A DNA stretch of 64,000 bases from Pseudocercospora fijiensis CIRAD86 (taxonomy: Eukaryota > Ascomycota > Dothideomycetes > Mycosphaerellales > Mycosphaerellaceae), in assembly GCF_000340215.1 (NCBI RefSeq), contig NW_006921534.1, forward strand, positions 62,001 to 126,000. The letters are read 5' to 3'. This document shows positions 26,440-50,762 of this stretch, one piece after another. The notes under the pieces are model-generated. The model was given only the letters and a program-made list of their open reading frames with translations. It had not been told where the DNA came from and searched no databases. The translations under genes were made by a program, and so were the position numbers. The first letter of the stretch is position 1. The number at the start of each line of letters is the position of its first letter.

Positions 26440-27180
26440 ATTTGCTAGACGGTTAAACTCTTAGGCGACTATCGTATATACTAACCTATTCGCTATATAG
26501 CGAAACCTATAGGCTATTATCTTATATAACGACTATTTTGCTATATAGCAAATCTATAGGTTATTATCTTATATACTAGCCTATCTACTAGACGGCAAAA
26601 CATCCGAGATAGCGTATCGTATATCGACCTATTTGCTAGATAGCAAAATCTATACGCTACTATCTTATATATCGACCTGTTTGCTAGACGGCGAATTAAA
26701 AGTAGTATTATATTATACGCTAACCCGTTTGCTAGACGGCAAATTGAATGTACTACTATTTTATATACCGACCCGTTTACTAGACAGCAAATTAAATGTA
26801 CTACTATTTTGTATACCGACCCGTTTGCTAGACGGCAAAATCTATGCGCTGCTATCTTGTATAATAACCTCTTTATCGGATAGCAAAACCTATACGCTAC
26901 TATCTTATATACCGACCTCTTTACTAGATAGCATAACCTATACGCTGCTATTTAGTATACCGACCCGTTTGCTAGACGGCAAAATCTATAGGCAGCTATC
27001 TTATATGCCGACCTCTCTACTAGATTGCAAAATCTACGCGCTGCTATCTTATATACCGACCCGTTTGCTAAACGGCAAAATTTATAGGTAGCTATCTTAT
27101 ATTACCGACCTCTTTGTAGAACACAAAATCTATAAGCTATTATATCGTATACTAACCTCTTTAACTAATAGTAAAATATC
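26440..27180 (+). repeat. 48-bp minisatellite with TTTGCTAGACGGCAAA core
   Basis: About 15 diverged copies of a 48-bp unit; well preserved copies are exactly 48 bp apart (for example 26779 and 26827). Each carries cccgtttgctagacggcaaa or a variant. Since 48 is a multiple of three, one frame is open over 26633-27091 as a 16-residue repeat (LLDGK core). I regard that as a consequence of the repeat, not as a gene. The array ends close to the assembly gap, so its true length may be underestimated. Confidence 0.85.
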
Positions 27181-27229
27181 TAGGCTGTAATAGTATATAA
27201 ACTACTTTATATAGGATTATATAAACATT

Positions 27230-30493: not shown

Positions 30494-30667
30494 TTATACG
30501 CATCCTTCTAATACTCGAAATAGGTATATAGTAGTACGTCTATCCCCTCTATCGACTAATCTCGTTAATCTATATCTATCCTCGATGCCGCTTAAGAGTA
30601 ACTATACTAATCGTTAACTATAATACTATTACCTATCGGCCTCGCCTATAGTTATAGAGACCGTATC
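30494..30667 (-). pseudogene. C-terminal end of the split SNF2 gene
   Basis: The frame that is broken at 56830 by the gypsy insertion continues here. After removal of the insertion and one copy of the GTATC duplication, AYLDT joins VSITIGEADR in the same frame. It then runs about 55 codons to a TAA at 30494-30496 after VLEGC. This continuity is strong evidence that both parts belonged to one gene. Confidence 0.65.
30663..30667. repeat. Gypsy target-site duplication, left copy (GTATC)
   Basis: GTATC immediately before the 5' LTR, matching 56830-56834 immediately after the 3' LTR. Five base pairs is usual for Ty3/gypsy integration. Confidence 0.9.
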
Positions 30668-31297
30668 TATTATAGTAGCTGCCTAGAAAGCACCGACAAG
30701 TCCTATAAGCTAGCCGCTATACTATAAAGTAATATCGGATTTAAGTTGCCTTAGTAGTAGGGGCCCCTAGCGAAGTAGGTCGCCTAGTTAGCCTAAGTCG
30801 CCTAGTACGCCTAGTACGCCTAGTACGCCTAGTACGCCCGGGTCGCCTAGGTCGCCTAGTTAGCCGCCTACTTAGCCGTATAACGTAATATCTTAGGGAC
30901 TCCCGTAGAGGCCGCATATAGTAGAACAATACGTTATATATTAATATACAAACGATAGGACTATACTAAACTATGCGTACGTATATACGGACGATAGCAA
31001 GCGAGATATATAGAGCTGTAGGACAGATCCGAGTAGTAGGAAGGAACCGGAAGGTAGGGAAGAGCTAGGAGAAACATATTTACTTAAGAGCGGTTAAACG
31101 AGTTCGTATACGCGCGCTACGTAAGTTAGCTAGAAGACAAAGGTACTATAAGATAGCGGATATACGTGCTTACGCTTACGCGTCGGACGCGCTAGACGGC
31201 CGTAGGGCGGAATACTAAGGAAGAGGCTCTCCCTCTAAGGTACCCTTCTTCCTTTCTTCGTAGTTCGTCTTATATAAATAGTAGCTATATTAATTTA
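30668..31297 (+). repeat. 5' LTR, first 630 bp
   Basis: Aligned without gaps to 56135-56764. It includes four tandem copies of a cgcctagtac-type decamer (about 30800-30840). About twenty differences from the 3' LTR were noticed, all transitions as far as compared, so LTR divergence here measures RIP rather than age. The open frame 30741-30929, with its twin 56208-56396, lies in the LTR and is not considered a gene. Confidence 0.93.
31296..31297. repeat. TA target duplication of the DNA transposon, left copy
   Basis: The LTR reads aatttagtgctccc when uninterrupted (56758-56771). Here it reads aattta before the insertion and tagtactccc after it, so TA is duplicated. Confidence 0.85.
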
Positions 31298-31339
31298 CGT
31301 TACGAAAACTTTTTTTCTAATCGCGTCGATCCTATCGAT
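31298..31339 (+). repeat. Left terminal inverted repeat
   Basis: It starts cgttacgaaaacttttttt and matches the reverse complement of 50721-50762 over about 42 bp with a handful of mismatches. Confidence 0.85.
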
Positions 31340-31490
31340 CCTATCGATCCTAAGCGATCCTAAGCGATCCTAAGCGATCCTAAGCGACCGAGTCGCGACC
31401 CGACTCGCGCCCGGATTACTTAGGATCGATAGGATCGATACGATCGACGCGATCGACGCGATCGATAGGATCGATAGTGTAAATTTTTAT
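31320..31490. repeat. Left subterminal GATCC repeats
   Basis: Repeated gatcctatc and gatcctaagc units, then an inverted series (gatcgatagg, gatcgacgc). Subterminal short repeats next to the TIRs are typical transposase-binding regions in CACTA-like elements; that role is inferred. Confidence 0.75.
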
Positions 31491-31805
31491 ATATATAGGA
31501 TCGCTCTAGGTCGCTCGTAGTCGTAGTCGTTAGTAGTGTTTATACTATTCGTATAGTACTATATTAATACTTATCGACTCGTCGACTCGGTCGTATTAGT
31601 CGACTCGGTCTAAACTAGAATATACTAGTAGTACTACAGTTTTAAGTATATTACTATTATATTAACCGTCGTTACTATATATCGCTATATCCTGTCTTAT
31701 ACGTTCTCTATAAACTATAAAATCATTCTTCGCCGCCTTAGTATTATTATCCTTTGTGTTTTAGAGGTGCGATTTCTATATACTCTATATAGTACGTTGC
31801 CTTTT

Positions 31806-34800
31806 TATTACTCGCCCGTAAGCCTTTACGGCTCGCATTTCCTTATCCTCCTATTCCTCGTCGTAAATTGTATTATACGTCTCGAAATCAACTATACTAT
31901 TAATATAGCGAGTCCTATATAAGGCGCCTTCGTCTACGGGTACGGCGTACAATATATAATAGACTAGTAGTAGGCTATATACCCGTCGCCCTTTAAGTCT
32001 ACTATAGTACGGTAAAAGACGCCGTAGCCGGATTGTCGTTAGACTATACGCATCCTTATACTCGCTCTTATCGTTAATATAGTCGTAAAGCTTAATAAAA
32101 ACGCCTATAACGGGCCTCCGTTTCGTCCTAAGCCCCTTCCTATATTTGATTCCTATTTCTATATTAATCGAGATTACGTACTTTAGTTAAGCTAGTAGGC
32201 GACCGCCGAATCGAACCGCTAATTTATTAGGTGTTTCTATATAATTAACGTTGTATTCCTATACCTATATAAAATTATAACGTCTGTTGCCGTAGAGCCT
32301 CTCCTAGTTTAGTATATATCTCGCGAAGTCGGCTGCTACTACGTTAGGATGTTCTATATCCTTACCCGTAGGCTTCTAGCATCGGATTCTACCGTAGAAG
32401 CAGATCTCTATATCTAGGACATATATATAGTCCGTTACGATATCGTTAGGGTCGGCTGCGGTACTTAATGCGCTATTCTTATCGTAGGCACCCTATTGCC
32501 GTACGAATACCGCAATCGCTTATTAGAAGTCGCGACCTAAGTTCTCTTCTATTGCAGCTATAGCCTCCCTTATCGTAATCTACTTAACCGATTTCTTTCC
32601 GTCCCTCTATTTCTCGGACTAGTATCCTAGGATGTCCTCTACTAGCCGTACTATAGTTAGCATTATTAGCTATTGCGTATACTCCTTAATAGTGCGAGTA
32701 TTTATAGGGATTGCTATATATTCTTTATCGTCTTCGGCCTATATATTCAATCTGTTAGCATCGCTATTTAGTATACTTTCTTCCTAGCTAGGCTTCTTAT
32801 TTGTTAGCCGAAATGCAAGCTTTAGTAGTTTATAGTGTTTGTGCTCGAAATGGCTAGTATTTAAGTCTAGAAGATTGCCGAACGTCTTAATATAGCTCGG
32901 GGCATGTGTTATGCCGTAGAATTTCGGTATATTAAAGTGCCCTTCTATTTATGTTATTATTAGCTCGTTAGCTTCGTCGTCCTCGTCTATTGTAACTATA
33001 TCGTCGTTATTTAGGTCGTTCGTTCTTCGCGTAGTAGCCTTCGCCTCCCGCTAGGCCCTCTTCTATGCCTTTGTTACCCTATATAGGCGAAATACATTCT
33101 TCTATTCGTTTATCCGGTACAATGCTATCCTAAGATACTTAACTGTTTCGTCGTTATAGTATCTATATATCGCTAGAACGGTAAAGTCTACTAGTATACG
33201 TAGAAATCTTATCGCCTACGGTTAACGGACCTCTTCGAGTAGTAGTACAAATATAACTAATAAGACTCGTAGGACGCTTTGCTGCTCTTAGCCTATCTAC
33301 TAAGTAACTGCTAAGTAGTAGCAGAACTTGCGAAGATTAGTGTATACGGGTATATACGCGAACCGTCTATCTAGTATTGTATCGATAATCCCTTATACTA
33401 CCGTTTTCCCTAGCTTTCTTGTTTTAGTAGATAGGCCCCTATTCGGGGTCGAGTCGGTAACTAGTCGGTATCTCCTCGTTTTTATATAGCTTATCTTGTC
33501 TACTAGTAGGTCCGTAGTCTATTAGATTGCGTATATTAGCACTCCTTTTAGTAGCTAGTATAGTGTGTCTACTACTAAAGACCGGTATATATCGACGTGT
33601 TTCTAGCGCTATATAAAGCAATCGATATCGTAGACGTTTTACGGATCCTTCGCTATATATTCGCCTTTGCGTTGCCTTAGATGTCGCTACTTCGTAGATT
33701 CGTATAACCGCTATTCTACTATAATATCGAGGTGCTCTCGTTCTATCGGGTGCACTAGGTAGCTTAGGCAATGTATGTTTGTCTTAACTCCGGTAATTGC
33801 AACTTGCTCTTTATAGTCTACTAATATTACTACTAAGATTAGAAAGCACCTACGCGTCGCGCTATCTATGTATATAATGTCCTAGCCCTCGCTGTCGGCC
33901 GCTTTTATAGCGGAGCGAAATATATATACTATCGATATGTAATATATACTGTTTTTAGTAAAACTATCGCTATCCTTAACGACCGGCAGTAGTCCTAGTA
34001 AGATCGTGCTAGGTCTGTTGTTCGCGTTACGTACTCGTACGTATAGGTTTCCGATAGTAAGGTATATAGGGTATGCTATTAAGTTACCTTAGTAGTTAGT
34101 TATCTGCGTTTTATCGGTTAATACGATTAGAGGTACGATCGTTGCGCCGTCTATGTTTATCTTGCTCTAGGTATCCTACTACTAGTCTACTAACGCTATA
34201 TTAGAGTAGATTCGCCGTAGTAGGTCGTTAGTCGTCTATGCTCGATATAGCTTATATACTAGATTATTCCTAAAGCTACTATAACCTATTAAGAACATTA
34301 CTGCTTTCTTAACAGATCGGTATCGTAGCACTAGCTCCGTGCTACCGCAACCCGTTCGACTTGTCGGAAGGTATAGCTTTCGAACCTTTATTTAACCTAA
34401 TGCCCTCGATAGTAGTATGCCGCCGGCTCGCAGTTTCGACGTTATAGCCTTTACTAAACTGTAATTATACTATACCTAGCTATAGGCTTGCTAGCGGCAC
34501 GGCTAGTATATTTAGTAAATACATCGATATTATCCGCGGTACGGTAGCCTTTTAGTGTTAGCCGTAATCTTATTAACTTCTAGCTTCCTAGCGTTATTGT
34601 CGTTCCGGCGGCAGTTGCTTATACGCTTTCTATTTCGTCTTCGTCCGCTAGGCTATCCTATATATCGAATTCTAGTAATTCAAGATATCTATCCTATTTA
34701 ATACTATCTATACTTCCCTTGTCTTCCTATAGCGCTAGTACTATTAGCGTTAATATCGTTGCTAGAATAGCTTCTATTATGCCTTCTTTATTTACGTCTT

Positions 34801-35032
34801 GCTATGTGCCTTCTAGTATCGATCTGTCGTCGGCTTATTCGGCGCTCTAGTTACTACCTTAGATCGTATGTGAGTTAAGTCGGGCTCGCTTCGCGGCATT
34901 GTTTGTAGTAGAATCGTGCTCGGCAAATTCTTTTAGTACGACGCGTTTCTCGCACTTGTTTCTATATTGCTTATAGCCGTAGGAGCTTTTAAGTAGCCGG
35001 TTATATAACCCGTATTCGATGTAGTAAGACAT
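31806..35032 (-). pseudogene. Plavaka-type (CACTA-like) transposase relic
   Basis: Starts at an ATG at 35032 (MSYYIEYG..., with a CxxxxK-rich N-terminal part). Diagnostic blocks follow in family order: ALVDWWWDTQSK (Trp restored, about 34150-34200), PLIVLTDKTQ, YLTIGN, RPSTILLGLLPV (about 33980), RRCFLILVVILVDYKEQ with ITGVKT (about 33790-33870), and near the C-terminus FTVLAIYRYYNDET and HFNIPKFYG (about 32910-33180). These match the Plavaka transposases of fungi, a CACTA-related group, in sequence and order, about 1,070 codons in all. Stops are TAA/TAG at Gln or Trp positions, with some frame changes in the N-terminal third. It is the leftmost gene and reads toward the left terminus. Confidence 0.8.
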
Positions 35033-35869
35033 TACTATATATGTAGTTAGCTTTCGATAATAGGCGCTAGTGCTATAGCTACTATAGGGTTACCGTATAT
35101 CGACGTATACGAAGTTACTAAGGCTCTACTACTACGAAGTTAGGCATAAGTCGGGGTCCGACTCGATATCGATTCGTAGCCCGCGGATTCGGCAAAATCT
35201 CGGATTTATCCCGTTCGATTATACTAACTTAATGTTACTCTACTAGCGCCTCTTGCGATAATATTTAAATACTAATTTGTATGCCGACTCGCCGTCCGAC
35301 TCGGCTACTAGTTAGGACCAATCGGAAAATTAATACTAAATATAAACGACCGTACTACACTTCGACTAGACTTCTACGTTACTTCTAACGCCCTAAGGCC
35401 TATATATTATACCGTAAAATGCGTTGTATATATTCAATTCTGTATACGTATAGGAGTAGCATTGCTCCGGTTTAATACTACGCCGTAGCATTATTAATTA
35501 CGTTAAATTCGCCCGGTACTACTAAGGCTTGCTCTAGTTATGTTATAGCTAGGTTGTATTCCTAAGTAAAGTAAACGAATAGCGCTCGAGTGACTGCTAG
35601 TAAGTATTGCTTAGCCGACTTAGTAACGACGTCGTTTAAGGCGGTATCTAATAAGCGGTTTATGTCAAATCTGAGGCCTCTAAGACTCGTAGCAGTTACG
35701 ACTACCCTATCGGTGCGCCTATTAGATAGAAGTATAAAGCCTTATCCTATCGACTCTATTTGATTTTTATATATACGCTATTATATATACGCTATTACAC
35801 ACACGCTATTATATATACGCTATTATATAGACCTATACGCCGACTTATTAATATTAACCTATGTCTTAA
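35033..35869. other. Spacer with 16-bp microsatellite, no gene recognised
   Basis: It contains tatatacgctattatatata-type tandem copies (about 35768-35830), partly as acacacacgctatta. No convincing frame is seen. Confidence 0.4.
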
Positions 35870-36640
35870 CCTCTAGCGTAGCTAAGTATCGGGTCTCGCG
35901 TCGCTCTAGGGATAGTGCGCTAGTTATCCGCTCCCTAGCTAATAGCACTATTCTATTAGCTAGAGCCCGCGGCTCTAACCTGCTTTAGGGTTCTAGGTAT
36001 TAAGGTCGGCTAGGTATGTTTCCGGTCGGGGTCGAATTGCCCTTATACTAGACTATATCTTCGACGTAGCGAGATCTAGAGCTAATCGTATCGATGTAGG
36101 TGCTTTAGCCGGGTATTACCTACTCGCTCGCCTATACTTAATAGGATATTGTAGGTTATAACCTAGAGTTAATCGGCTTTCTATACTAGTAGGCCGGGGA
36201 GGGTAATAATGCTCGCGTCTACTGTTTTCTAGTCGGTAGCAATTACACTACTACTAGTGCCTCTTTCTATTTTATAGGCTAGTTCGCTAATAAGGATTTG
36301 CTACTCGATCGCTCGTACCTAGAAGACTAGTTTGCATACCTCCTATACGATCTAGTTCTAGCTAATACTAAGCTCGCCGACTATATTATATTTCCGGACG
36401 GTAGTATATTAGACTAGGACGCTAGTAAGGATCGTGCTATTGCTTTAGTCCGCGGCGTAGATAAGTAGTATATCGATAGTGTCTAGAGAAGTACGTTTTA
36501 CTATAACTCGAATGTTTAGCTATCGCTAACTCTAAGTAGTACGATAAACGTTTACTACGGTTAGCTTAAGGCAGTATTACATACTATCGCAGGATAGCGT
36601 GCGAGCACTACTAGTCTAGTATAGACATATGCATTATTTA
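35870..36640 (-). pseudogene. Possible gene relic U (unknown)
   Basis: Two overlapping minus frames are both open apart from TAA/TAG, so the true one is uncertain. The more protein-like one is Ser, Arg and Gln rich with segments such as TPRTKAIARSLLA. No family is recognised. It may be an accessory gene of the transposon or the N-terminal part of a neighbouring gene. Confidence 0.3.
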
Positions 36641-37054
36641 TATATAGGATTGCTAAGTTCGGGGTCGATTAATAATTTAGGGGCGGATTAATACTACGAC
36701 TCGGCATCTTAGAGTTAGCCTACACTTTTCGGTAATACTATTAATATATCAAACTTATATCCTACTATATTACGATGCTATTTTCTAGTATTACCGTCTT
36801 CGTATTAGACGCTCGGTTAGCGCTAGACTAACCTGTATCCTATATACTAGCGGTAACTACGCCTTCGCGGATTGTCGAATTACCTAGAAGTAACTTAAAA
36901 CATTCCGGCATATATAGCGACTAATTTAAGTACAGATACGTATACCTATACATTTCATCGCGATAGGCCTTAATATAGATTAATGCAGTGCCGAAGAGTT
37001 TAGCTACTACTAGTTGAAATTATTGTCCTAGCTACTATCCTAGCATTCTACTAC

Positions 37055-37565
37055 TACTACTACTACTACCGACTCGCTATAGATAGCCTACTTAGCCTCG
37101 ATTCGTATAAGTTCCGTACTGCTTAACTTTCCGATATCTAGTTTCCTTGTCCGATCTAGCCTCCCGGCTACTAGATCTATATCCTATTACTACTATTACT
37201 ACTACCGACTTACTACGGATGCCCTACTCGGCCTAGAGTCGTATAAGTTCCGCACTGCTTTACTTCCCGCTATCTAGTTTCCTTGTCTTATCTAGCCTCC
37301 CGGCTACTAGATCTATATCCTATTGCTACTATTACTGCTACCGACTCGCGGCGGATAGCCTACTCGGCCTAGAGTCGTACGAGTTCCGCACTGCTTTACT
37401 TCCCGCTATCTAGTTTCCTTGTCCTATCTAGCCTCTCGGCTACTAGATCTATATCCTATTGCTACTATTACTGCTACCGACTCGCGGCGGATAGCCTAAT
37501 TAGTCTCGACTCGTACGAGTTCTGCACTGCTTTAGGTCCCGCTATATAGTTTCTTGTCTTTTATA
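37055..37565 (+). repeat. 136-bp tandem repeat, about four copies
   Basis: The marker ctagatctatatcctatt occurs at 37171, 37307 and 37443, exactly 136 bp apart. Each unit begins with a (tac)n stretch and contains gttccgcactgctttacttc. The array lies inside the DNA transposon between U and a large hairpin. Confidence 0.9.
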
Positions 37566-37639
37566 GCATCTCGTTATAATTCTCGGTAGAAGTACTATAG
37601 GATTTTCGTCGCCGTCGTAGTTATACTATAGTTAACGAA

Positions 37640-37855
37640 GGTCGAGGCTAATAACGCCGTAGGCTCGGATCTAGTACCGGTATATTAAAAGGGCATATAA
37701 GGCTATAATTATCATTAAGCAGCTAACCTCTTCGTTATAGGTAGAGCTATTTGCCTTCGCCTATAACGAAGGGATTAGCTGCTTAATAATAATTACAGCC
37801 TTATACGCCCTTTTAATATACCAGTGCTAGATCCGAGCCTACAGCGTTGTTAGGT
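37640..37855. repeat. Large hairpin, about 90-bp arms
   Basis: The left arm (about 37640-37730) and right arm (about 37768-37855) are inverted copies. Both arms carry ggctcggatctag at the outer side and cttcgttatagg at the inner side, around a loop of about 35 bp. It sits downstream of the Argonaute-like relic. It could be a foldback element or a source of double-stranded RNA if transcribed. Confidence 0.85.
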
Positions 37856-37857
37856 TT

Positions 37858-38230
37858 ATGTCGAGTCCGGGCGCTAGATTGCTAAGGTATATATCTAGTA
37901 TAGGTAAATACGGCCTTAGTCGTATAGCTAAAGATATAGTAGTAGTAGTATATAAATTGCTAAAGTTTATTCTCCTAATATTGAATTCTTCTTTTTCTTC
38001 TTCTTCTTCTTTATCCTCTAGACGAGACTACTCTTATCCGGCGTTAAAAACTGAAGAATTACTGCTATAACTCTTAGCTAGGACGCTAAACAAATAGGTA
38101 CGGCCACGCTCGCAAAGAAGGTCTATATAGTATACTAGTAGGCAGATAGACATAGCCTTTGTCGTACGGCTAAAGAGGTAGCAGAGGTAGTATATAAATT
38201 GCTAAAGTTTATCCGCCTTAAACTTGATTT
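37858..38230. repeat. About 115-bp direct repeat at the Argonaute 3' end
   Basis: Two copies (about 37880-37990 and 38120-38215) share tatataaattgctaaagttt and flanking sequence. On the minus strand both encode a version of the last part of the PIWI domain (KLQQFIYY...), so the second is a partial duplication of the gene's end. The open plus frame 37858-38070 is an antisense shadow. Confidence 0.65.
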
Positions 38231-39177
38231 CGTCCTTAGTAACTACGTAGTAAGCGGGTCGTGCTATGCCTTAAAGTCCTAAATGTGCCTATAGCCCGAC
38301 CCTATATAGATCTTATCGGCGATACTATAGTCGACGACTGTACCTACGAGTAGGTTCTAACAGTTATTATATGCATCCTGCCTACGAGTCGGGTAGAAAC
38401 GAGTATAGTAACGCTTACTAACGATAATTACGGTTATCTTCGGATACTTCTCTTTGCTACCGTAGAGCTTTGTAAAGGCCTTTTTAGGACTACCTAGGTT
38501 ACTATATAGTGCACTACCTCGATTGCTCTTGCGGTTAGTAACTAGGACCGACTACTTGTTAAATTTTCTAGGTCTAGTAAACTTAACGCTCTGCAAGTTC
38601 TAGCAGTCCTTCTATAGTGTACTAGGTTTCGAATTCGAATTATAGCCTACGCGAGGAGTATCTAGGATGCGGCCGGGCACTATAATTATACTAGTACCTA
38701 CCGAGAAGCTAAATAGCTTTACGGGAGTTAACTAATAATTACCGGTAGGATCGGTAAGATAGAAGAGCCGCGGACTATTCCTAAGCCTAGTACTAGGAGT
38801 TCCGGTAATAGACATAGCATCGAGGTTTAGAAATATAGCTACGAATTTAAGCATCTTAGAAGTCTAGTCGCCTCTAAGTAGGCGTCGATAAGGCTTATTA
38901 GTACGGATTGTATATAGCTCGGTAGGTAGGTACTAGGGATTAGCGCGTATACTAACGTTAAGTACTAGACGATCTAGGTGTCTAAGGGTAATTCCGTAGT
39001 ATTAACGGAAGTAATCATTTATAGTAATCTATTGCGTTGTAGTATTCGGGATACTATAGTCGGCAAGGCGGAATCTAACCTAGTTAGCATTACTAAAACG
39101 CTAAACCTAGATCTTGTCGGTAGCCTTCGCGAAGCCGATAATAGGCCTAACCTTAACTCTGAACGGCTTTTGCTCCG
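38030..39177 (-). pseudogene. Argonaute-like relic (PAZ, part of MID, C-terminal half of PIWI)
   Basis: Blocks appear in Argonaute order on the minus strand: EQKPFRVKV and ATDKIQVQRF (linker 1, about 39090-39175); a PAZ domain with ITINDYFRQYYGITL and YLPTELYTIRTNKPYRRLL (about 38890-39030); GDQTSKMLKF (38851-38874); a MID start with VPGRILDTPR (38652-38680); then YPKITVIIVSKRYYTRFYP (38385-38425), VGTVVD, and in the next frame QAHLGLQGIARPAYYVV (Gln restored, 38238-38300) and KAMSIC...LLCERGR. About 250 residues that should hold the first two catalytic acids of PIWI are missing near 38555, and one frameshift lies near 38310. An acidic tail follows. Family knowledge: Argonautes bind small RNAs for silencing. 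This copy cannot be functional. Confidence 0.8.
38235..38315 (-). other. Frameshift in the PIWI part of the Argonaute relic
   Basis: GTVVDYSIAD is read in one frame, QAHLGLQG in the next. They are joined by a shift of one base near 38310. It may be a small deletion after inactivation or an unrecognised intron. Confidence 0.5.
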
Positions 39178-39387
39178 ACGCATACAACCTAGCGTAATAC
39201 CGTTAGGTTAGATAATAAGGGACCGTTTATTCGGCTAGAGGGCTATAAGGAAGCTTAGAGGCTCGAAAGAGGAAGCTCTCGGGCACTTTTTCGAACCCCT
39301 AAGTATCCTTATAGCCCTCTAGCCAAACAAACAGTCCCTTATTATCTAACCTAACGGTATTACGCTAGTTTGTATACGTCGGAGTAA
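39170..39387. repeat. Palindromic insertion-like hairpin, about 100-bp arms, at the 5' edge of the Argonaute frame
   Basis: The left arm 39170-39269 and right arm 39286-39387 are inverted copies (tccgacgcatacaacctagc versus its inverted counterpart) with a loop of about 16 bp. The Argonaute frame reads cleanly up to its edge and is lost beyond it. It resembles a foldback or MITE-type element but shows no clear target duplication. The open plus frame 38978-39211 overlaps its left arm by chance. Confidence 0.8.
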
Positions 39388-39399
39388 TATATAGCAAGA

Positions 39400-39970
39400 A
39401 TAATAAAGGTATAGTTATAGGATACTCTAAGAGTAAGTAAGGCGACTCGGTCGTCCTTCCGCGATACTCTTACTACCTTTACCTTAGCTATAATCTAGCT
39501 CCGTAGTATAATAGCGGCGCTCTATATTAGATAGGGTTTAGCTTCTTATTCTGCTAAAGTCTCCGAGAGTAGTTAGGCGACTTAGTTGTCCTCCCGCGAT
39601 ACTCTTACCGCCTTTAACCTAGCTGTAATCTAGCTGCGTAGTATAATAGCGGCGCCGCGTAGTAGATAGGGTTTAGGTTCTTGTTCTACTAGAGGCCCGC
39701 GATAGCCGTAGCCGTAGTTCGTGTCTCGAGCTTAACTTTACCTACGCCTTTGCCCTAGCTATAATCTTACTCCGTAGTATAATAGCGGCGCCGAGTAGTA
39801 GATAGGGTTTGGCTTCTTGTTCTACTAGAGGCCCGCGATAGCCGTAGCCGTAGCGTCCTTCTCGCGATACTCCTTATCGCCGGCGTAGTTCTTATCTTAA
39901 GGTTAACCTTGTCTACGCCTTTGCCCTAACTATAGTCTAGCTCCGCACGTATAATAGTAGCGCTATATAG
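39400..39970 (+). repeat. Second array with about 136-bp period
   Basis: The marker tagtataatagcggcgc occurs at 39504, 39639 and 39775 (135 and 136 bp apart), with a fourth degenerate copy near 39947. The sequence differs from the 37-kb array although the period is the same. It lies where the Argonaute N-terminal domain would be expected. Confidence 0.75.
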
Positions 39971-40179
39971 TAAATAGTGTCGTAGCGCCGAGTATAGTTC
40001 TAGCTAGCGCGCTAGTTGCTAATCGCTCTAGCTACGGTTGCGGGGTTGTTTAACCGATCGCCTATACTACGTAACCTAGTCGACTATATTCGATTTCCTA
40101 GCCTAGGGTCTATACTATGTATATTCTACTTAATACTAGAACGATAGGGAACTTCGATAATATAGATAAGGTAAAGGAT

Positions 40180-40545
40180 AGTTAAGAATCGTAGTACGCG
40201 GTTAAGTCGTTAGTACTTAATCGAGTCGATAAACGTAGTAGCTAGTTAGCCTTTCCTAACGTAGAGGACCCGGTTAGATAGATTAAACGAAGTATTCGAA
40301 TCTCGGGTAGGGTAGCGCTATATATCCGTAAGAATAGACCGCCGCTATTTATACGATAGAAGACGAATAAAGAACTGCAAGACGAGGTAGAGCGGTTAGT
40401 ACTAGAGTTAGAGCAATTGCGTAAAAAGGTTGCGTTTCTATTACGAAAACAATAGGCATATAATAATATTATACTCGATGCGTAAAGAAGGTAGTAACGG
40501 AACATAGGGAAATATACTATACAGATGTATAGTAAGAGGGGATAG
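40180..40545 (+). pseudogene. Small coiled-coil protein relic W
   Basis: A plus-strand frame of about 115 codons with few RIP stops: PNVEDPVR, a basic stretch, then KNRPPLFIR, and a heptad-like run LQDEVERLVLELEQLRKKV (about 40374-40434). Leu/Val residues at seven-residue spacing next to basic residues suggest a leucine zipper, possibly bZIP-like, but the basic region does not match the bZIP signature clearly. The open minus frame 40242-40505 is its antisense shadow. Confidence 0.4.
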
Positions 40546-40760
40546 GAAGGGTAGGGCGGTAGGTTAGGTAGCTTCCTAATACGTCGGTTTGCCGATTAGT
40601 AACCTAAGCCGGACTAAGTCGGATAGCTAGTCGGTTGTCGAGTCGTATCGCTAATTTGAAGGGTAGAGCGGTAGTCTAAGTCGCTTCCTAATATATAGGC
40701 TTGCCGACTCGTACCCTAAGTCGGTTATCGAGTCGTATCGCTAATTTGTACCTATAGTAG
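40540..40760 (+). repeat. Short direct repeats (gagtcgtatcgctaatttg)
   Basis: The segment gagtcgtatcgctaatttg occurs twice about 90 bp apart, with cgcttcctaatacgtcgg variants. The CGACTCG theme also recurs in both subterminal regions of the transposon. Confidence 0.6.
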
Positions 40761-40799
40761 TAGTTATTAACATTAGGCGCGGATAAATACAACGTTAGG

Positions 40800-43700
40800 C
40801 TTGCTTTGCTTATATTAACATTTTATAGCGTATCTGCTATATCGACGTCGACTCTGTATACTACTTCCCCCGCTCGCAATACTAGCGCCGACGTACGCTA
40901 TAGCTATATCCTATTATACTTTACCCTTTTTCCTCTTTTTTTCCTTCTCGAAGCCGAGCGATTGTTATATATCCTAAGCTCGTACCTGTCTACTTATAAC
41001 CTATACTGCCTATATAATTACAACCGATACTATTACAAATCGGTACGACTCCGTAAAATCTACCCTCTAAACGCCGGCCGCGCGAGATACTCTTCTACCT
41101 ATTTAAATGTTAGCCTCCGGAGTCTAGTAGTTGTCGATAATAATAACGGTATCTATAGGGGGGAGGTTTATACTAGTTATAATCTAGCTTGTATATACTA
41201 CTATAAGCTACTTCTCGTCGCTGTATCTATCTACCTTGTTCCTCGTAGATACGAACTCTTTAATAAGGTCGGCCCTAGTAGTATCGGTCTAGCTACTCTA
41301 AGTATCGATAAGGATTCTATATACTATATTACTAGTACTTAGGATGTTATCGTAATACTCGGAGTCTTTTTTCTATATAGCTAGCTACTAAAGATACTAC
41401 AAAAATGTTAGTCTTATATACTTAGTAGATAGGGGGGCAGATAGATACGTACTAAGTCTAAAACGAAGACATTCTACGGCTTAAAGCTAGCTAGCACAAT
41501 CTTACTTCTATGCCCGTACTAGCGCTACTTGCTACGCTTAATTCGGATTATATACCGTAGCGATACTATAACCGGCTCGTTATGCAGTGTTAGTATATAG
41601 TCCTAGAGGTAGGGATCTAATAAACCGTAGTCGCGTATCCTAGGAAGCATGTTTTTAATGTCCTATAGTGTGAAAGTACTAAGTTCCTTAATTAAGTCCG
41701 TATCGCCCCCCCCGTAGTACGAGAAGTAGCGATAGAAACATAGTAAAGACCCGTATTATCTTAGATATGTATATAAATTTAGTATCTTCCGCTGCCTTCT
41801 ATTCTTCGACCTACTCGCTTAGTACTAGATCTTCTATAGATTTAAATTGCAAGCCGATATTAAAATAGGAATATAGTAGACAATCGATAGCTAGTACGCG
41901 CGGAGCATTAGGTATAGGTTGCTATATTAGCGTCTTCTTAAGGCGAACCATTTTCGTTAGTAACTAAGGGCGAAACTTGTCTAGCGCCCGAGTATCTTTA
42001 TCCGTAATACTTGGTTCTATTCGACCTACTATCGCGTTAGAGTATTCGGATTGTAAGTACTTAGAAACCTAATTGCTAATATGCCTAGCCGAGTTAGAGA
42101 TATTACTATTGTCGCTAAACTAGAAGTTACGTTCTATATCGCGCGTCTCTTTAGTCGATAGCGATTAGTCGACGAAATCAAACCGTACTATAGAAGGCGA
42201 CTAAACAGGGCAGAGGTACCCCTTTATATCGTAGGTATTAACGTATCTCTATACTAAGGCAGTTGCGATAATAGCTAAATTAGATAGTTTACTAAAGAGG
42301 GTGCTACTTAGGCCGAGAACGAAAGGATAGCCTATAAGACTAGCGACGGCAGTCTACTCTTTAGCGCTATATGTCTTAGTAATATAAAACTCGTCGACGA
42401 TAATAGTCGCAGCTAGTATACGAAGTAGCGGCGGTTTCGAATTAGATTTCTCCGACCGTGTCTAGGACTTCTATTTCTTAGCTCGTTCGTACGTTATAAA
42501 ATCTAGTACGTTAGATATTATAGTCGAGATAGTAAGGACGATCCATTTATAGTACTATAAATAAGGGGGTACTTCTATATCCTCGTATTTAAGCAATAAG
42601 CGCACCGGGACGCCTTTTTTAAACTACTACTTATCTATAACCTTTGTACCGAACACCTATTCTAGTTCTAGCCGAGTCGGGAGCGCTATATAATCGAGAT
42701 AAAGAACGTCCTCGATATATACGACCTAGTTATAGTTCTACGGACTAGTTCTGTTACGTCTCTTATCTTTCGTTAGCTTACTAGAGTCTTTTATAAAACA
42801 TACGAACATAGCTCCGGGGGGCATAAAGTTGTCGATCTTATATATCTAGTTTTCGGCTAGCTACTTCGGAACACAGATAACGTAAACGCTAGGGCGGATA
42901 ACCGGCTTTGCACCGCTAGCTAATACCTACAGATCGAACGCAATTTTCTTATTTAGCCGAAGTCCTAGGTTAACCGACGAATTAGATAGCCGAAAGGGAT
43001 AGGCGTTAGTAGTTAATAGCCTGTTATTACTCTATACCCTCTACTATATCGAGGTTATAGCGACGTACCCTAACGTATATACCGTCTTGCCTATACCTAC
43101 GTCTATACCACCGATATAGAAGTCCGCGCTAGCAACGGAAGCTAGAAGCGTCTAGGTAATTGTATAGAATTAGTAAGACTTTAACGGACGAGTCGATCTC
43201 TAATTAGGCGGAATAACGCCTATACGCGGCGAAGTCTAAGAGGGATCGAGTAGTCTAAAATCGTATATTAACTTAAAGTTCTTAGCGTCGAGATAGGAGT
43301 ATACGTTACTAGATAACTGCTTCTCGACGTCGGTTTCTATATCTAAATCTATCGACTAGCTAGGTATCGCCGACGAGATCTAATCGACAAAATTTACTAA
43401 CGTCTAGATCGGTAGAGGGTCGGCTTAGACTTCTGCTTGCGTGCCCGGTAGTCGTACGGCGAGTTTAGGCTTATTCGGATCTAGTAGCGATACGATCTAA
43501 CTCGGTAACGACTCGATCTATTTCTAGCGAATTCGATCTCGCTTCGAGTCGATTATATCTCCGGCCTTCTTACTATTAGTATTATCGGCTTTACTCGGAT
43601 TAATTTTTCTATTATCCTTAGCATTATTACTAGCATTTGTCTACGCCGGAGGTTGTACTAGGGATAGTACTAGTCTATTTGAAGCGTGCTATATCTTAGG

Positions 43701-45265
43701 TAGAGTAGAAGCAATATAGGTCTTTACCGTATACTCTATCGTATCGGGCTATACGGAACGGACGGCCGTTTAAACCGAATCGTCGAGGGCGACTAGAAGT
43801 AAAGTAGTGTTCCTATTATAACCGTTGTCGCGGAGCACCTCCTTAACTGCCTTATCGATAGCCTACTAAATCGCTATTATATCCGCGGCGACGTCGGCTA
43901 TAGCTTTTCGCGCGGCTACCTGCCGAGCTACCTCCTACTCTTTATATATCTTCTAGAATCTATCCGCGATAAGCTGTTTATAGCGCTCGCGATCGGCGCG
44001 ATCCTTACGAGCGAGTCGGTCGTCCTTAGCTTACTTAATAGCCGATTTCGTAGGCGACTACGGACCCTAACCGATATTGATTTCGGCAGGATTACCGGCT
44101 ATAGAAGTACCGTACTAAGCTAGGTCGATAGTTCTAGAAGCCTTAAGTAGGGACGGTCGACGATATATAGAAGGTATCCTAGTATAGTCCGTTATATTTT
44201 TGCCGACGAGGAAATCGAGTCTAGTAGAAATCCTAGTATCTAAGCTATTATATATCTCTATAGCTAGGGAGTAGAATATCGGATTAGTCTTACATTTAGA
44301 AAGACCTTTAGGGCCGCGAGCTAGATCGATTACTACGAAGAATTCGTACTTCTACTATTCGGGCGATAGTAATAACTCTCGTACGAGCTAGAGCCGCAAC
44401 AAATCCTTTATACTAATATTATTAGAAGTCTTCGATTATAGGATAGACTAATTTAGGCTAAATACGTCGTAGTCTACCGTTAAAGGTAACCGCTAGTCGA
44501 TAATACTAAACTATAACGTAATCTTAGCCCGGTCCGGCTTAATAGGGCGTAGCGCGTCGGACATTACTAGATTAGTATCCTTACTACCGTGCGAATCTCC
44601 TAGCGTTATTCTCTTAAATACCCGACCGGCTCTACTAGTCTTACTAGCAGAGGCAGAACTTGCTCTACGCTTAGGTATAGAGGGCGTAGTTTGTCGGGAT
44701 CTATTAGTCTCGCTCTCGGATACGTCTTCCTCTTTAGTATTATTACCGGCCGGTAGGGTAAACTTGTCCCTTATAACCTTCTATATAAGGCAGCATACTA
44801 AGTAGACTATAGACCTCTAAATTTCATTATTCGGACTATTTGCATTGTCCTACGGAAGCATTCCCCTAACGTACTACTTCGGAGCCTGTTTAGGATCTTT
44901 AAAGTACTATTCGGGCATCAATAGCGTACGTCTAGGTTTAGTAGGATAGTTGAGGTTGCTAGCAATAGCGTATACTATAGCTTTCTCCTCCTTATAATGC
45001 CCCTTAACGGGCTAGCGACTCTACTTCCCCTTTAACTAGTTAAATAAAAAATGTTTCTCTAGATATAGAAGGAGCCTTTTTATTACTAACGTAAGAAGAG
45101 GCTTGTCGATGCTATACAGGTTTAGTATAATATGTTTAGGGACGTCTTTGCCGCTATTTAAGGCTTTAATTAGTAGCTCGTTGTCCTTTAGCTAGTCCTC
45201 GACATTCGTAGAGACTACTATCTCGGTAAAGGCAGTAGGCGACGAGTTTGTAACTAGTATATAGC
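40800..45265 (-). pseudogene. SNF2-like helicase relic carried by the DNA transposon
   Basis: A long minus frame of about 1,480 codons. The N-terminal 700 residues hold Ser/Lys-rich linkers and a charged coiled stretch (about 43880-44030). A Walker A reads GGIDVGIGKT (43075-43116), motif II IIVDEFY (42364-42410, His to Tyr by RIP of DEFH), and motif III LGLSSTLFSKL (about 42290). The second RecA domain ends with NLPPIDTVIIIDNY, then TPEANI and GRRVSRAAG (41085-41175), corresponding to motifs V-VI. This order is that of SNF2-type ATPases. Stops are almost all TAA/TAG. The open plus frame 40806-41342 is its shadow. As cargo it might remodel chromatin or DNA at the element, which is speculation. 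Confidence 0.7.
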
Positions 45266-46590
45266 ATTAGTATATAACAGGTTATACTAATTAGTAATAC
45301 TTATATAACAGAGGTTAGGGACTATAGATCGATAACGACGTACACTATCCGAGAGTAGTAGATAAACTAATAGAGTTAGTAAAATTCGCTATACGTTAGG
45401 GTCGGCGGAGGTAAGAATAGGAGCGGAGAGCTACTTATACCCGCCGACCCTAACGCGAGCCGTTAGAGTTGCGTTATATAACGAGTGTCTATATATACTA
45501 GCTTAACGCTAGTCGAGCACGACGGCTAAGTTATATAGTACGGCCTATATACGAGTTAGAATAGGGCATTAGCGAAGGAAATAATATACTATACGTACGA
45601 TAGGGAGGGTAAGGGGGTGTATATGCATAGAACAGGTGTATTAGTACGAGTTAATAGTAAATGTTGAAGAAGGTAGTAATAAGGAAAGGTAACGACCTTA
45701 AATGCCTACCTCGTAACCGGGTCGGTTAGCGAGTCGGGCCTAACTAACTAATAAATCGACGAAGTAAGGCATCTAGCGCTTAAGTATGTAATAGTTTAGT
45801 TACGCAACTAGTAACCGAAGTAATAAGGCTATAGATAATCGTTATAGTATAAACCCCTATACGATAGACAGTTCTAGATATAGGACTAACAAGTCGTAGT
45901 AAATATAGTACTACGTAATAAGTAATCGAAAGTTAGTAAAGTAAATATAAGCCTATTTATAGCAGAGTTGCGACTACGATCGCCGGCGCGAGACGCGAGT
46001 GCTTATAAGCTACGCAATGTAGCTAAATTGACCGATCTATGTCCTTATAGTAACTAACAATTATTATACGATAGCGGGTAGACTAGACCCGCTATAGTAC
46101 GAGGGTATAGGCTAGTAAGGCGGTTAGTCTTAGGACCCGAGAGCAGGGCATATAGATAGTTCGAGCTAACGATTAAGATAGCATGTTTTCTATAGATGCT
46201 ACTAACTCTATCGGCGGCGAAAAGGTATGTATTTAGCTATAACGAGTAGTAAACAAAGGCATAAAACGATCGAAATATTCTATAGATCGTATACTAGAGT
46301 AGTAGTCTACGTAGGAGGCCGAATAAACGACCGTATATAAATCCGCGGCAATATAATACACTAGGCGTAAGGTTAAGAAGCGAGATAATAGATAACGTAA
46401 TTTGCCGAACCCGCTACCGAAGTTAGTAATAGAGGATATAGAAGTTGCCTAGTAGGCTTAGTACCCGATTCGATACCGAATTAGGGCCCGAGTCGGTATT
46501 AGCAAACCCCGCGACTAGAGTAGTTCTAGTTTCTACTACTAACTAACGTCGACTTTCTACTACGCTATATATACAACTACCGCCTTCGAG
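45266..46590. other. Divergent spacer between the helicase and V
   Basis: No convincing gene. A 15-bp inverted repeat (cgttagggtcggcgg at 45394-45408 and ccgccgaccctaacg at 45441-45455) can form a hairpin in what would be the shared promoter region of two divergent genes. Confidence 0.5.
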
Positions 46591-49500
46591 AATGCTACGT
46601 ACTTAACTACCTCGCGATTAATATTTAATAGGCGGTATTACCCGCGGCCTTAGCCTATCGCCGTCGATATACTATGTATTTTACGCTAGCGTCGAGAGGT
46701 CAATTTAGGAGTCTAGTTAGATTAGTAGCACGTTTCGATTACTATTATTGCTAGAACGCCGAAGGACGCAAGGTTACCTATACGACCTAGTATTAATAGA
46801 CGAGAAATACGAAGAAGAGTTCCCTAAGGTAGTAAAGCAGATCCGTATAGTAGAGGGACAGACTACGTTTAGGTGCCTAGTATACAAGATTTGTTCTAAT
46901 TATCGCCGACGGACGAGACGAAAAACAGTGCGTATAACAACGCGTAGAGTCGGCGATACTAGCGATTACGCGGAAATTGCTATATCTACGGATACTAAAC
47001 TAGCGACACTAGAAGGATCTAGAGCGGTGCCGCCGTACCGCGTGCTAAATAATATATAGTAGAGCATAGTTATAGTATAAGAGCAGAATAGGAAGGTAAA
47101 ACCTATATATCGACTATATAAACTCGATTATCGCTAGCCTATAGTTAGAGGCCGCGCGTTAGTAGGAGTCGATAACATAGACCTCGAACGATTAGTTAAG
47201 ATACTACGGGTAGATTGTAGTTTCGAAGCCGGCGTCGACGCCTTGCATTAGATAAGCGACTAATATAGACACGTTCGAATTAACAACGAGCGATAGTAGA
47301 GGGCTAGTCTATCCGATATATTAGGCAGAGGCCTATAGCTGCGATTTGCAATCTATAGGCAAATTAAGGAGGCAGAACGAGCGTAAATGTAAACGCAGAA
47401 AAGCGAGATAAATAATTAATTTTACTAAGTCCGATATAGAAGTCCTACTCTAATAGTAATAGGCACTAATCTATTTATTAAACGGAAGGCAAGATACCCC
47501 GACTACGATAAGCACTACGCTTTGATCTTAGACATATGCTAATATATAGTAAGCATATTACGTATAGTAGTCTTAAGCGCCGCGATCTCTTCCTTTATCT
47601 ATTTAATCTCGGCCTATATTTAAGCACCCTAATCGCGCTATAGCGATAGCGGACTCGGGGTAGCCCGATAGTTAAGGAAAGGCTAAATCGGCTACGACTA
47701 GCAGTCGTCGTGCTAGGGTAGATTGCATACATCTAGCTAATCTAGTTAGAATTGTATCTATCGAGTATAGGGCCTCTACGGTATTATTAACCTCGAATTA
47801 GCTAAACACGTCGATAGAGATAGTTCTAACTAACCCGTAATATTGCGAGGCGGCTTCGAAGATATATATTCGACCTAGCGGATTAGCTAACGCCGATTAA
47901 TTTACCGATAAAGAACATATATCTATATATACCGTAGTAGCGACCGAGCGAGGAATAAATAGTCTAAATACGCCGATTGCTTTAGTGCAATATCGATAGT
48001 GTTACTATATGCCGTCGGCATAGACTATAATAATTACCGCTAGACTAATAATAGCGCTAGATTAATAGTTCCCGAATCCGACTCGCGACCGAATTAGGCT
48101 AGCGTCGACAAGGTACGAAAATAGCGAATAGTCTATAAGCTACGATTATACTTTAGCGTTAGCGGGGCATATCCGACAGGACTAATAAGCGATTATAGAC
48201 AGCGACTCGGGCAGTCTATATAGGAGCAGAAGATAAAACCGCAATTTAATGCCCCCCTTTTCGTAGAGTAAACAAGCACGAAGACGCGTATAGTCTAATG
48301 CATACTACGTTAGATTCGCAATAATACTACTACTCGTTATAGTACACTTAGGATAGGTCGCAACTATAAAGAAGATAAATATAGAACTAAGTCGTTATCT
48401 AACTCGACAGAGTCGGATAGGGATACTAGATTCGAAGAAGAAAACGGGGAGGATACTCGTTTATATATAGCGACTAGCATTAGATCGAAATTCATAAAGG
48501 TAACGTACGCTAGAGCACGGTAATAGAGGACTAACGTAACTAGTATAAGGGCAAGAATAGCAAAGATCCGGCAAGGCTAAAACAGAAGTACGGCGACGAT
48601 AAGGCGGATTAGAGCGACGATATAAAGCTATTAAAACGACGTAAGAAGCGAGACAAAGGCTTAACGACTTCTAGTAAAGAACGTTTGAATCGAAAGAAGG
48701 GCTTACTCGAAGCAAGGGAGCAAATCTTGTATAACGAGACGCGTCGTAAACTATTCGCTATTACGTTAACTAGGGCCTAAGGATATAAGACGATGTTTCC
48801 TACTACCTAAACCCTAGTATAGGTAGACGAAACAATTAAGGAGGTATATAGTAAAAACTACGATCGATTACTAGCTTTACGTACAATAGTGCTATAGCCG
48901 GGTAGCTATATACCGTCGAGAGACGTAGTCTAAGCAGTCGGTAGAGATCCCGATATAACAGCATCGAGACTAATATTAGAATAGTTGCGAGAAGCTATAC
49001 GAAAGGAGCGAGGCTATATTAATACCTATATCCGATTAACCTTAACAAACTAAGCACCGATCGTAATAACCGACACTCTAAAAAGGATAGTATACGCTAA
49101 GAGGATGCTCGACAACTAAATCTTCGAGTGCTACGACGAGAAACTAGTAAGACCCTCTCTAAAATAGCATAGTTACTAGATAATAGCTAACGGTCGATAT
49201 ATGCTACGCGCGACCTTAGTAAGCTTATATACAAATGTCTAGCGGGTATACTACTCCGGCAGGATCGGCGAGGCTAGAAGACACATATTAAACAGTACTA
49301 CTACAAAGTCACCCCTTTTATAATATTGTCTACCGCTACGGTACTCGGTAGAATACTAACCGGATAGTCGATAGAGTCGTATTTAACTAAAGTCAGAGGT
49401 AAAGCGATCTAGCTAGCCCTAGATTATAAGTTAATATACTAGCCGTTCCTAGATCGGATAACTACGTAGAATGCGACGGATTAAGCTACTCGTAACCTTT

Positions 49501-50370
49501 AGTTATCGAAAGCGTAGAAGATATACGTACGGTATATAGATAGAGTATAGGATACCCCTAAATTATTAATAAATAACTTCGAGAGCGTACGTAACGATAT
49601 CGATACACTTATAGCAATCGACGTCGTTTTAGATTCCGACGATAAAGGCGGATCGATCGAGCGCTATAGTAAGAGTAGTCTGCGAGCGCCGTGTTTCTCT
49701 TACCTACTAATATAATCGACAGGTCCTAAAGCGTCTACCGGGTAATAATTAAGTAAATAACTCAAAGCCGGCGACAATGCGATAGATAGGTTAGCGGAGG
49801 CGGAGGCCCTACCTAAGAAAAACGATATTAGACTGCCTATACTATAGAGCAGTTTCTAAGCGATAGATTAGGAGCCGACGGGGGCTATTAATCCGTTTAC
49901 TTCGGTACGGGGAGGCAACGGCACAAGTATAACCGAGACAATAGAATATAATAGAACCGAAGACAATTAATACTAAAGGTATAGATATACCGCGGTAATA
50001 GTAACAGGGAAGGATTGCGCGCTAATTACTATAAGAATAGTAGGTATTCCGACTAGTCTTATATAACAGATAAGACTTTATTCGCAGCGGTAAGTAATCG
50101 CGTTAGGGATATATTAGGGCTAGAAGAGGGGGAGTAGATATAGTAGGCGGATATAGAGGCGGACGGCGGCAAAGTTAAGGAGATAGTATTTAACGAGGAG
50201 ACGTAGGATCGAAGAATTAGGAGATATATAGTAAAAGAGAAGAAGAAGTTAAAAGGAAACAAACGAAAGAAGGTAGAGGTATATCGCTTTAATATAGCCG
50301 TAGAGGACGAATAGAATACATTCTTATTAACCGTAATAAATAGATGCCCTATACAACATAACGAAATCTA
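46590..50370 (+). pseudogene. Gene relic V (about 1,250 codons, unknown)
   Basis: A plus frame can be followed across TAA/TAG for about 3.8 kb. It includes the open segment 46748-47059 (RRTQGYLYDLVLIDEKYEEE...), which has conserved-looking Cys and basic residues (CLVYKICSNYRRR), and a well-behaved block at about 48960-49300 (KERGYINTYIRL, YDEKLVRPSL). The C-terminal third is Gln/Arg rich with an acidic-basic tail. I compared it by eye with transposase, RdRP and Dicer signatures and saw none. It may be a second transposon-encoded protein, as CACTA-type elements often have. Confidence 0.45.
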
Positions 50371-50619
50371 TTAATACTATACGAGTCGGTCGCTAAGTCG
50401 GTACTAACTTAGTATACGTAGTAGACGTATGCAAATGCTAGTAGTTACCCGAGTATATATATAAACGTTAGATGTTAGTAGAAGCAACTATCGTATAATA
50501 TACAGATCCGATAGAAAATGTAATTCAAATGCTAGTACTAGTACATGCGACGACTCGAGCCCGACTCGATATACGAGTCGGACGGTAAAAAACAAAATTC
50601 TTAATACGAACAGATTTGC

Positions 50620-50745
50620 TAGAATTTCTAGATCGCGACGATCCTGTTAGACAAGATCTTTAACATACGATCCTAAGGATCCTAAGGATCCTAAGGATCC
50701 TAAGGATCCTAAGCGATCCTATCGATAGGATCGTCGCGATCGGTA
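50620..50745. repeat. Right subterminal GATCC repeats
   Basis: Five or more tandem gatcctaag units (about 50670-50713) follow a solitary gcgacgatcctg. They mirror the left subterminal array but have a different unit length. Confidence 0.75.
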
Positions 50746-50762
50746 AAAAAGTTTCTATAACG
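50721..50762 (-). repeat. Right terminal inverted repeat
   Basis: It ends gtttctataacg just before the second TA and pairs with 31298-31339. Confidence 0.85.

What the first reader, a model, noticed from the sequence alone, without database searches (positions are those of the whole stretch)
38030..39177. Argonaute gene carried as cargo inside a giant DNA transposon
PAZ, MID-start and PIWI blocks are readable in Argonaute order inside a 19.5-kb element bounded by TIRs and a TA duplication. A transposon that carries part of the silencing machinery is unexpected. It could have interfered with host RNAi, guided the element, or been a captured host gene. The blocks are seen in the sequence; the role is speculation.
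Basis: partly seen in the sequence, partly recalled or inferred. Interest (0 to 1): 0.92.

Follow-up and report, generated by a model that had tools for sequence, protein, structure and literature searches.

The report
Transposon carrying a dead Argonaute fragment
A large fungal jumping gene picked up part of its host's own RNA-silencing gene and spread it to dozens of places in the genome, where the copies found are all broken; it looks like an accidental passenger rather than a working weapon.

Summary
On the minus strand at 39175-38022 lie RIP-damaged PAZ, linker-2, MID-start and C-terminal PIWI pieces. They sit in a 19,465-bp element (31298-50762) with 18-bp TIRs, a 2-bp target duplication and a Plavaka transposase. 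The Argonaute is not private to this copy: of 62 damaged loci compiled (a lower bound), 44 have a Plavaka transposase 3' on the same strand, 41 of them 3.2-5.6 kb away. The donor is an intact QDE2-like host gene, 99% identical to Pseudocercospora fijiensis MYCFIDRAFT_133529. The copies mostly carry P. fijiensis-specific residues, so capture followed the split from P. musae. The known stretch is partial: host residues about 300-1038 of 1051. All 19 window-family copies read share a frameshift, and the 18 that span it share a large internal deletion, so in this family it was dead before it spread. Transversions among element families fall evenly over codon positions (49/43/49), without sign of protein selection. 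Best reading: transduplication of a host RNAi gene as a passenger, then RIP. A counter-silencing role is possible but unsupported.

The parts
31298..50762 (.). Plavaka-type DNA transposon, 19,465 bp, flanked by TA/TA
   Evidence: 31 same-strand pairs of left and right ends, 21 of them 19.2-20.9 kb; perfect 2-bp duplication in 9 of 11 copies
31298..31315 (+). Left terminal inverted repeat, 18 bp
   Evidence: the L009 copy stops matching at this point
50745..50762 (-). Right terminal inverted repeat, 3 mismatches in 18
33537..34349 (-). Plavaka transposase domain (PF18759, E 1.2e-41), with stops inside
   Evidence: the named relatives found are basidiomycete proteins with the Plavaka domain at 22-36% identity
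38022..39175 (-). Captured, RIP-damaged fragment of the host QDE2-like Argonaute
38852..39100 (-). PAZ remnant
   Evidence: PF02170 E 4.3e-8
38642..38725 (-). Linker-2 remnant (ArgoL2, below cut-off)
   Evidence: PF16488 E 0.0088
38309..38509 (-). PIWI piece, host residues 870-942, after an internal deletion of about residues 643-876 (edges approximate)
38022..38309 (-). PIWI C-terminal piece, host residues 943-1038, in another frame; ends 13 residues before the host stop codon
37890..37987 (-). Partial repeat of PIWI residues 967-995 beyond the capture junction
   Evidence: TBLASTN E 0.026
37648..37853 (.). Foldback palindrome (94-bp arms) on the 3' side of the Argonaute piece
39170..39387 (.). 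Foldback palindrome (102-bp arms) where the Argonaute piece breaks off at its N side

Best explanation
Transduplication. A Plavaka DNA transposon of the P. fijiensis lineage took up a piece of the host's own QDE2-like Argonaute gene (known stretch about residues 300-1038 of 1051, so without the N domain and the last 13 residues) and spread it by cut-and-paste transposition. Elements lost different internal parts of the piece. RIP then put stops into the copies while the donor gene stayed intact. Shown: donor, junction, linkage, RIP, and in the window family a deletion and frameshift older than the spread. Inferred: that the piece never benefited the element, and how it was picked up (the captured part of the donor has no intron, so DNA and RNA routes cannot be told apart).
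For: Donor: the intact ORF at C3:5762.2-5765.35 kb is the best host match, with orthologues in named Mycosphaerellaceae at 62-99% (family membership recalled) and no RIP signature ((CA+TG)/(AC+GT) 1.21 in the captured part, 1.17 before it, 0.32 in the element's piece). RIP: 17 of 17 stops in the window piece fall on host Q (13) or W (4); 116 of 165 C>T/G>A changes lie in CpA/TpG context (104 of 116 in the C29 copy). Linkage: 44 of 62 Argonaute loci have a Plavaka transposase 3' on the same strand, and 44 of 70 Plavaka domains have such an Argonaute. Of the 26 without, I looked at 10: nine read N in whole or part, one (C20) is readable and holds neither Argonaute nor element sequence. Same capture junction (about residue 1038, GAA run, same flank) in the window family, L006 and L060. 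Dead before spread: frame break at 942/943 in 19 of 19 window-family copies fetched; residues 671-865 missing in 18 of 19, the other lacking the upstream part. No constraint: 141 transversion sites variable among 11 family representatives split 49/43/49 over codon positions.
Against: Other families keep long stretches without a frameshift once stops are read through: 287 codons in L006, 320 in L033, so an ancestral element may have held a longer, translatable piece. Against the host alone, the closest copies lean to third positions (transversions at positions 1/2/3: L033 0/1/3, L056 0/3/4, L057 2/6/7, L058 3/1/6); the host's own branch may cause this, but the numbers are too small to tell. Only 6 transversion sites separate all families from the host (1/2/3), so selection just after capture is untestable. 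Not every change is RIP-like: the window piece also has 33 reverse transitions and 49 transversions, part of them in misaligned stretches, and in L006 and L027 4 of 27 and 3 of 36 stops fall on other residues than Q or W. L027, L060 and L062 keep Pro at 451 and 458 as in P. musae, where the others do not, which one simple capture does not explain. 18 of 62 Argonaute loci have no Plavaka within 20 kb on that side.
Confidence: 0.84

Rival explanations
1. Functional cargo: an ancestral element carried a translatable Argonaute piece that blunted host RNAi (for instance by binding guides without slicing), and only its decayed descendants remain.
For: The families together cover residues about 300-1038; L006 and L033 are free of frameshifts over 287 and 320 codons; slight third-position lean of the closest copies against the host. 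TET/JBP cargo in fungal transposons, Plavaka included, is proposed to help escape from silencing (Kojima 2025, abstract and passages).
Against: No copy read extends into the N domain or the last 13 residues; flat codon-position pattern among families; the window family spread with a deleted, frameshifted piece.
Confidence: 0.09
2. The fragment works as nucleic acid rather than protein: small RNAs from it, or RIP spreading from it, weaken the host Argonaute gene.
For: A sequence-only role would survive loss of the reading frame; two palindromes flank the piece. In Z. tritici an amplified DNA methyltransferase gene lost all copies, the original included, to RIP (Dhillon 2019, abstract).
Against: The donor shows no RIP signature and is open over 1051 codons; the damaged copies are now far from the donor in sequence; no small-RNA data were available.
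Confidence: 0.06
3. The Argonaute piece is a private secondary insertion in this one copy.
For: Palindromes lie at both sides of it.
Against: The piece is inside 19 of 31 elements with both ends and beside 44 of 70 Plavaka transposases, on the same strand.
Confidence: 0.01

Closest known systems
Histone H3 captured by a hAT transposon in P. fijiensis and relatives (Dhillon et al. 2019, PMC6710886)
   Same: Same fungus; host gene inside a TIR DNA transposon, amplified, copies broken by CpA-to-TpA RIP, donor intact (abstract, outline, passages and section 6 seen)
   Different: Other superfamily (hAT, 8-bp duplication, about 9.5 kb), other gene, an old event in six genomes; here Plavaka, an RNAi gene, and capture after the split from P. 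musae. 'Argonaute' occurs 0 times in its main text
TET/JBP genes carried by Plavaka and other fungal transposons (Kojima 2025, PMC12730594)
   Same: Plavaka with cargo that touches silencing (abstract and passages seen)
   Different: There the cargo is proposed to act; here it is a partial, unconstrained fragment in an ascomycete element with other termini. 'Argonaute' and 'RNAi' occur 0 times in its main text
QDE2-like Argonaute MYCFIDRAFT_133529 of P. fijiensis
   Same: Source of the fragment (99% identical to the intact gene of this genome)
   Different: Intact host gene; the flanks fetched have no similarity to the element

Membership tests
Plavaka DNA transposon | Plavaka transposase domain (PF18759) | tested here: met
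   E 1.2e-41; 70 copies in the genome, each with stops inside
Plavaka DNA transposon | 2-bp (or 2-3 bp) target duplication, after Kojima 2025 | tested here: met
   9 of 11 copies perfect
Plavaka DNA transposon | Termini TGT..ACA (PlavakaA) or CATCA..TGATG (PlavakaB), after Kojima 2025 | tested here: not met
   Termini are CGTTACG..CGTAACG: described here as an element with a Plavaka transposase, in neither published terminal group
[quoted passage not shown]
   Transposase is RIP-damaged; motif not traced
Argonaute (working slicer) | N, PAZ, MID and PIWI domains | tested here: not met
   PAZ, linker 2 and the PIWI end present; N, most of MID and the PIWI start missing in this copy
Argonaute (working slicer) | Catalytic Asp-Asp-His set of PIWI (recalled) | tested here: not met
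   The blocks that hold both Asp lie in the stretch deleted from the window copy
[quoted passage not shown]

The most novel reading that the evidence does not exclude
Fungal DNA transposons in this lineage took pieces of Argonaute on more than one occasion as a form of counter-defence: an early element carried an open L1-PAZ-MID-PIWI piece, or used the sequence as a silencing decoy, that dulled host RNAi during the burst. The two sequence groups of Argonaute copies would be two such episodes.
Probability: 0.08. Interest if true: 0.88.

Novelty: new member of a known kind. Interest (0 to 1): 0.52.

Why it matters
It gives a donor-identified, relatively dated case of a DNA transposon taking up part of the host's silencing machinery, in a genome where another gene (histone H3) met the same fate. 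That makes a testable pair: do transposons that capture defence genes gain anything, or is capture blind and RIP the only judge? The codon-position test on transversions, which RIP does not make, sees no selection among families here and can be used on other RIP-damaged cargo genes.

Tried and rejected
Dicer idea: a weak Helicase_C match at 41237-41079 (E 0.0016, below cut-off), also in L012 (E 0.0034) and L034 (E 0.022), not in L013. A PDB search and a protein search gave no helicase, so no claim is made.

Two-superfamily idea: L027 holds Argonaute and histone H3, which looked like the hAT-H3 element carrying Argonaute. A 5,021-bp unit with 18/18 TIRs and an 8-bp duplication closes before the Argonaute, so the H3 unit is a neighbour, not the carrier. 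The carrier of that group is not identified; no Plavaka domain lies within 20 kb 3' of it on the same strand.

Empty elements: 12 of 31 elements with both ends have no Argonaute listed. I looked at the place in 9 of the 12; all nine read N in whole or part, so they are no evidence either way.

Second capture: residues at 451 and 458 suggest two episodes, but the shared junction favours one capture plus later exchange; left open.

Literature: nothing on Argonaute in a Plavaka or in P. fijiensis repeats in the listings, which show 1 of 1, 8 of 9, 15 of 81, 3 of 3, 5 of 5, 12 of 49 and 12 of 164 papers; two further searches failed. Absence from print is therefore not claimed.

A first count of linkage (43 of 61) had left out one locus and mistyped one coordinate; one search repeats it with the lists in full, apart from the open host genes, the L002-like copies, one PIWI place of untested type (C1:99302) and short extra fragments beside listed places, and supersedes it. 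In the same check the Argonaute-bearing end pairs were recounted as 17 of 31, or 19 of 31 with the places.

Full report
What was checked. The finding says that PAZ, MID-start and PIWI blocks can be read at 38030-39177 inside a 19.5-kb TIR element. Six-frame Pfam scans with stops read through find PAZ, linker 2 and two PIWI pieces on the minus strand in Argonaute order, and nothing at E <= 0.01 on the plus strand. Two of the four matches are below Pfam's curated cut-off, but the two above it (PAZ E 4.3e-8, PIWI end E 5.3e-12) and the TBLASTN match to a host Argonaute leave no room for chance. The span is 39175 to 38022.

The element. The left TIR starts at 31298 and the right one ends at 50762, 19,465 bp, with TA on both sides. 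Genome searches with the two ends scored 40 of 229 and 40 of 241 candidates. Pairing these gave 31 same-strand pairs of 15-45 kb, 21 of them 19.2-20.9 kb. Both ends of ten further copies were fetched. With the window, 9 of 11 have a perfect 2-bp duplication (TA in six, GC, AA, GA), one has TT/TA and one was not scorable. The transposase is Plavaka (PF18759, E 1.2e-41). A genome search found 70 Plavaka domains, 70 of 70 candidates scored, each with stops inside. A protein search with the read-through gave 11 matches; the eight named ones are basidiomycete proteins with Plavaka domains at 22-36% identity. The termini differ from both groups that Kojima 2025 describes. Beside the element lies a 631-bp repeat (97%) that recurs at 56134-56764, with gag, RT, RNase H and integrase domains between, so it appears to have landed in or at the edge of an LTR.

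The donor. The genome (73.9 Mb, 30 contigs) has six Argonaute loci with open frames; in one of them (L007) the second PIWI stretch has one TAG, perhaps an intron. One, L001, matches the element's piece closely; the other five are 26-29% identical to it. Its protein is 99% identical to P. fijiensis MYCFIDRAFT_133529, 88% to a P. musae and 82% to a P. eumusae protein, with all five Pfam Argonaute domains. So the genome is P. fijiensis or nearly so (inference). The donor's frame is open over 1051 codons from stop to stop and shows no RIP signature. Its fetched flanks have no similarity to the element; about 1.2 kb of ordinary sequence precedes it, and beyond that a 3-kb stretch has a RIP signature.

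How many copies. From, whose lists are capped, I compiled 62 damaged loci of this Argonaute. 44 have a Plavaka transposase 3' on the same strand within 20 kb, 41 of them at 3.2-5.6 kb; 18 have none. 44 of the 70 Plavaka domains are so paired, and 19 of the 31 elements with both ends hold the piece. Of the 26 unpaired Plavaka domains I looked at the expected place in 10: nine read N in whole or part, and one (C20) is readable and holds neither Argonaute nor element sequence. The 18 Argonaute loci without Plavaka include a group of copies (L027, L028, L062 and others) whose carrier I could not identify, and one at a contig end (C29).

Damage. In the window piece 17 of 17 stops sit on host Q or W codons; in L006 23 of 27, in L027 33 of 36, in L033 15 of 15 and in L056 18 of 18. 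In the window piece 116 of 165 C>T/G>A changes are in CpA/TpG context and 116 of 170 such host sites are changed; there are also 33 reverse transitions and 49 transversions, part of them in misaligned stretches. But RIP is not the whole story. In the window family the piece lacks host residues 671-865 in 18 of the 19 copies fetched (the other lacks the upstream part) and has a frame break at 942/943 in 19 of 19. RIP makes neither deletions nor frameshifts (established knowledge), and shared defects must predate the spread. Other families lost other parts: L006 lacks 513-751, and L033 keeps 454-773. The known stretch runs from about residue 300 to 1038. The end at 1038, followed by a GAA run and the same flank, is shared by the window family, L006 and L060, which points to one capture junction; that L060 sits in a Plavaka element is not shown. 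The start at 300 is seen only in L027 and L062 and might be a later deletion.

Selection. RIP makes only transitions, so I compared purine/pyrimidine states alone, after masking misaligned stretches. Among 11 family representatives 141 sites vary: 49, 43 and 49 at codon positions 1, 2 and 3. A protein under selection should show an excess at position 3. Caveats: the count includes changes after RIP; only 6 sites separate all copies from the host (1, 2, 3), so the first phase after capture cannot be tested; and the closest copies lean to position 3 against the host (L033 0/1/3, L056 0/3/4, L057 2/6/7, L058 3/1/6), which the host's own constrained branch could explain.

Timing. Where P. fijiensis differs from both P. 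musae and P. eumusae, which agree, the copies carry the P. fijiensis residue by 11:1 (window), 9:0 (L006), 16:0 (L033), 17:0 (L056), 12:0, 13:0, 11:0 and 15:0 (L057, L058, L059, L061), and by 16:5, 11:2 and 13:3 in L027, L060 and L062; 6-17 sites per copy that fit both or neither are left out. Capture therefore followed the split from P. musae. L027, L060 and L062 keep P. musae-like Pro at 451 and 458 (Leu by a RIP-type change in two of them at 458); the others read at 458 have the host's Ala codon or a RIP-type derivative, and at 451 Ser (L061) or Tyr (window, L006, L056, L059). At 868 L006 too has the P. musae-like Leu. With a shared junction this suggests one capture and later exchange with the host gene or among copies; it is not settled.

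Mechanism and verdict. The evidence fits transduplication: partial uptake of a host gene, spread by transposition, internal deletion, then RIP. The same fungus has a published precedent, histone H3 in a hAT element (PMC6710886; abstract, outline, passages and section 6 seen). Cargo that touches silencing is known from Plavaka and other fungal transposons as TET/JBP genes (PMC12730594; abstract and passages seen). What I have not seen elsewhere is the gene, an RNAi effector, in an ascomycete Plavaka element with its donor and relative date known. A counter-defence role is attractive but has no positive evidence beyond long frameshift-free stretches in two families and a slight third-position lean.

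Noticed in passing
L008 (G000:C27:81886-85740); also G000:C25:36562-37822, C17:17287-18580, C1:86068-86400: A second host Argonaute (L002 type) also has a damaged copy: L008 is 56% identical to L002 over 361 aa; the C25, C17 and C1 places hold PIWI pieces with stops, also near contig ends, whose type was not tested. A TIR like that of the window element lies beside L008's copy at 3468 but faces away from it.
   Followed up: partly
L027 (G000:C10:2.80 Mb) and L028 (C7:2.00 Mb): A 5.0-kb unit with 18/18 TIRs and the 8-bp duplication ATAGCTAT holds two histone H3 remnants in L027: probably a short form of the published hAT-H3 element, next to an Argonaute copy.
   Followed up: partly
window 30666-31297 and 56134-56764: 631-bp direct repeats, 97% identical, with gag, RT, RNase H and integrase domains between them: the Plavaka element sits in or at the edge of the LTR of a retrotransposon.
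   Followed up: partly
window 37045-37573 and 39476-39980: 136-bp tandem units on the 3' side of the Argonaute piece and other short repeats on its 5' side, besides the two palindromes.
   Followed up: no
window 41079-41237, minus: Weak Helicase_C match (E 0.0016), seen also in two of three other copies tested, below cut-off and without support from the PDB or protein search.
   Followed up: yes
window 2900-26200: Four copies of a multi-kb repeat unit with internal 273-, 255- and 30-bp tandem arrays, and a 48-bp array at 26429-27198; not identified.
   Followed up: no
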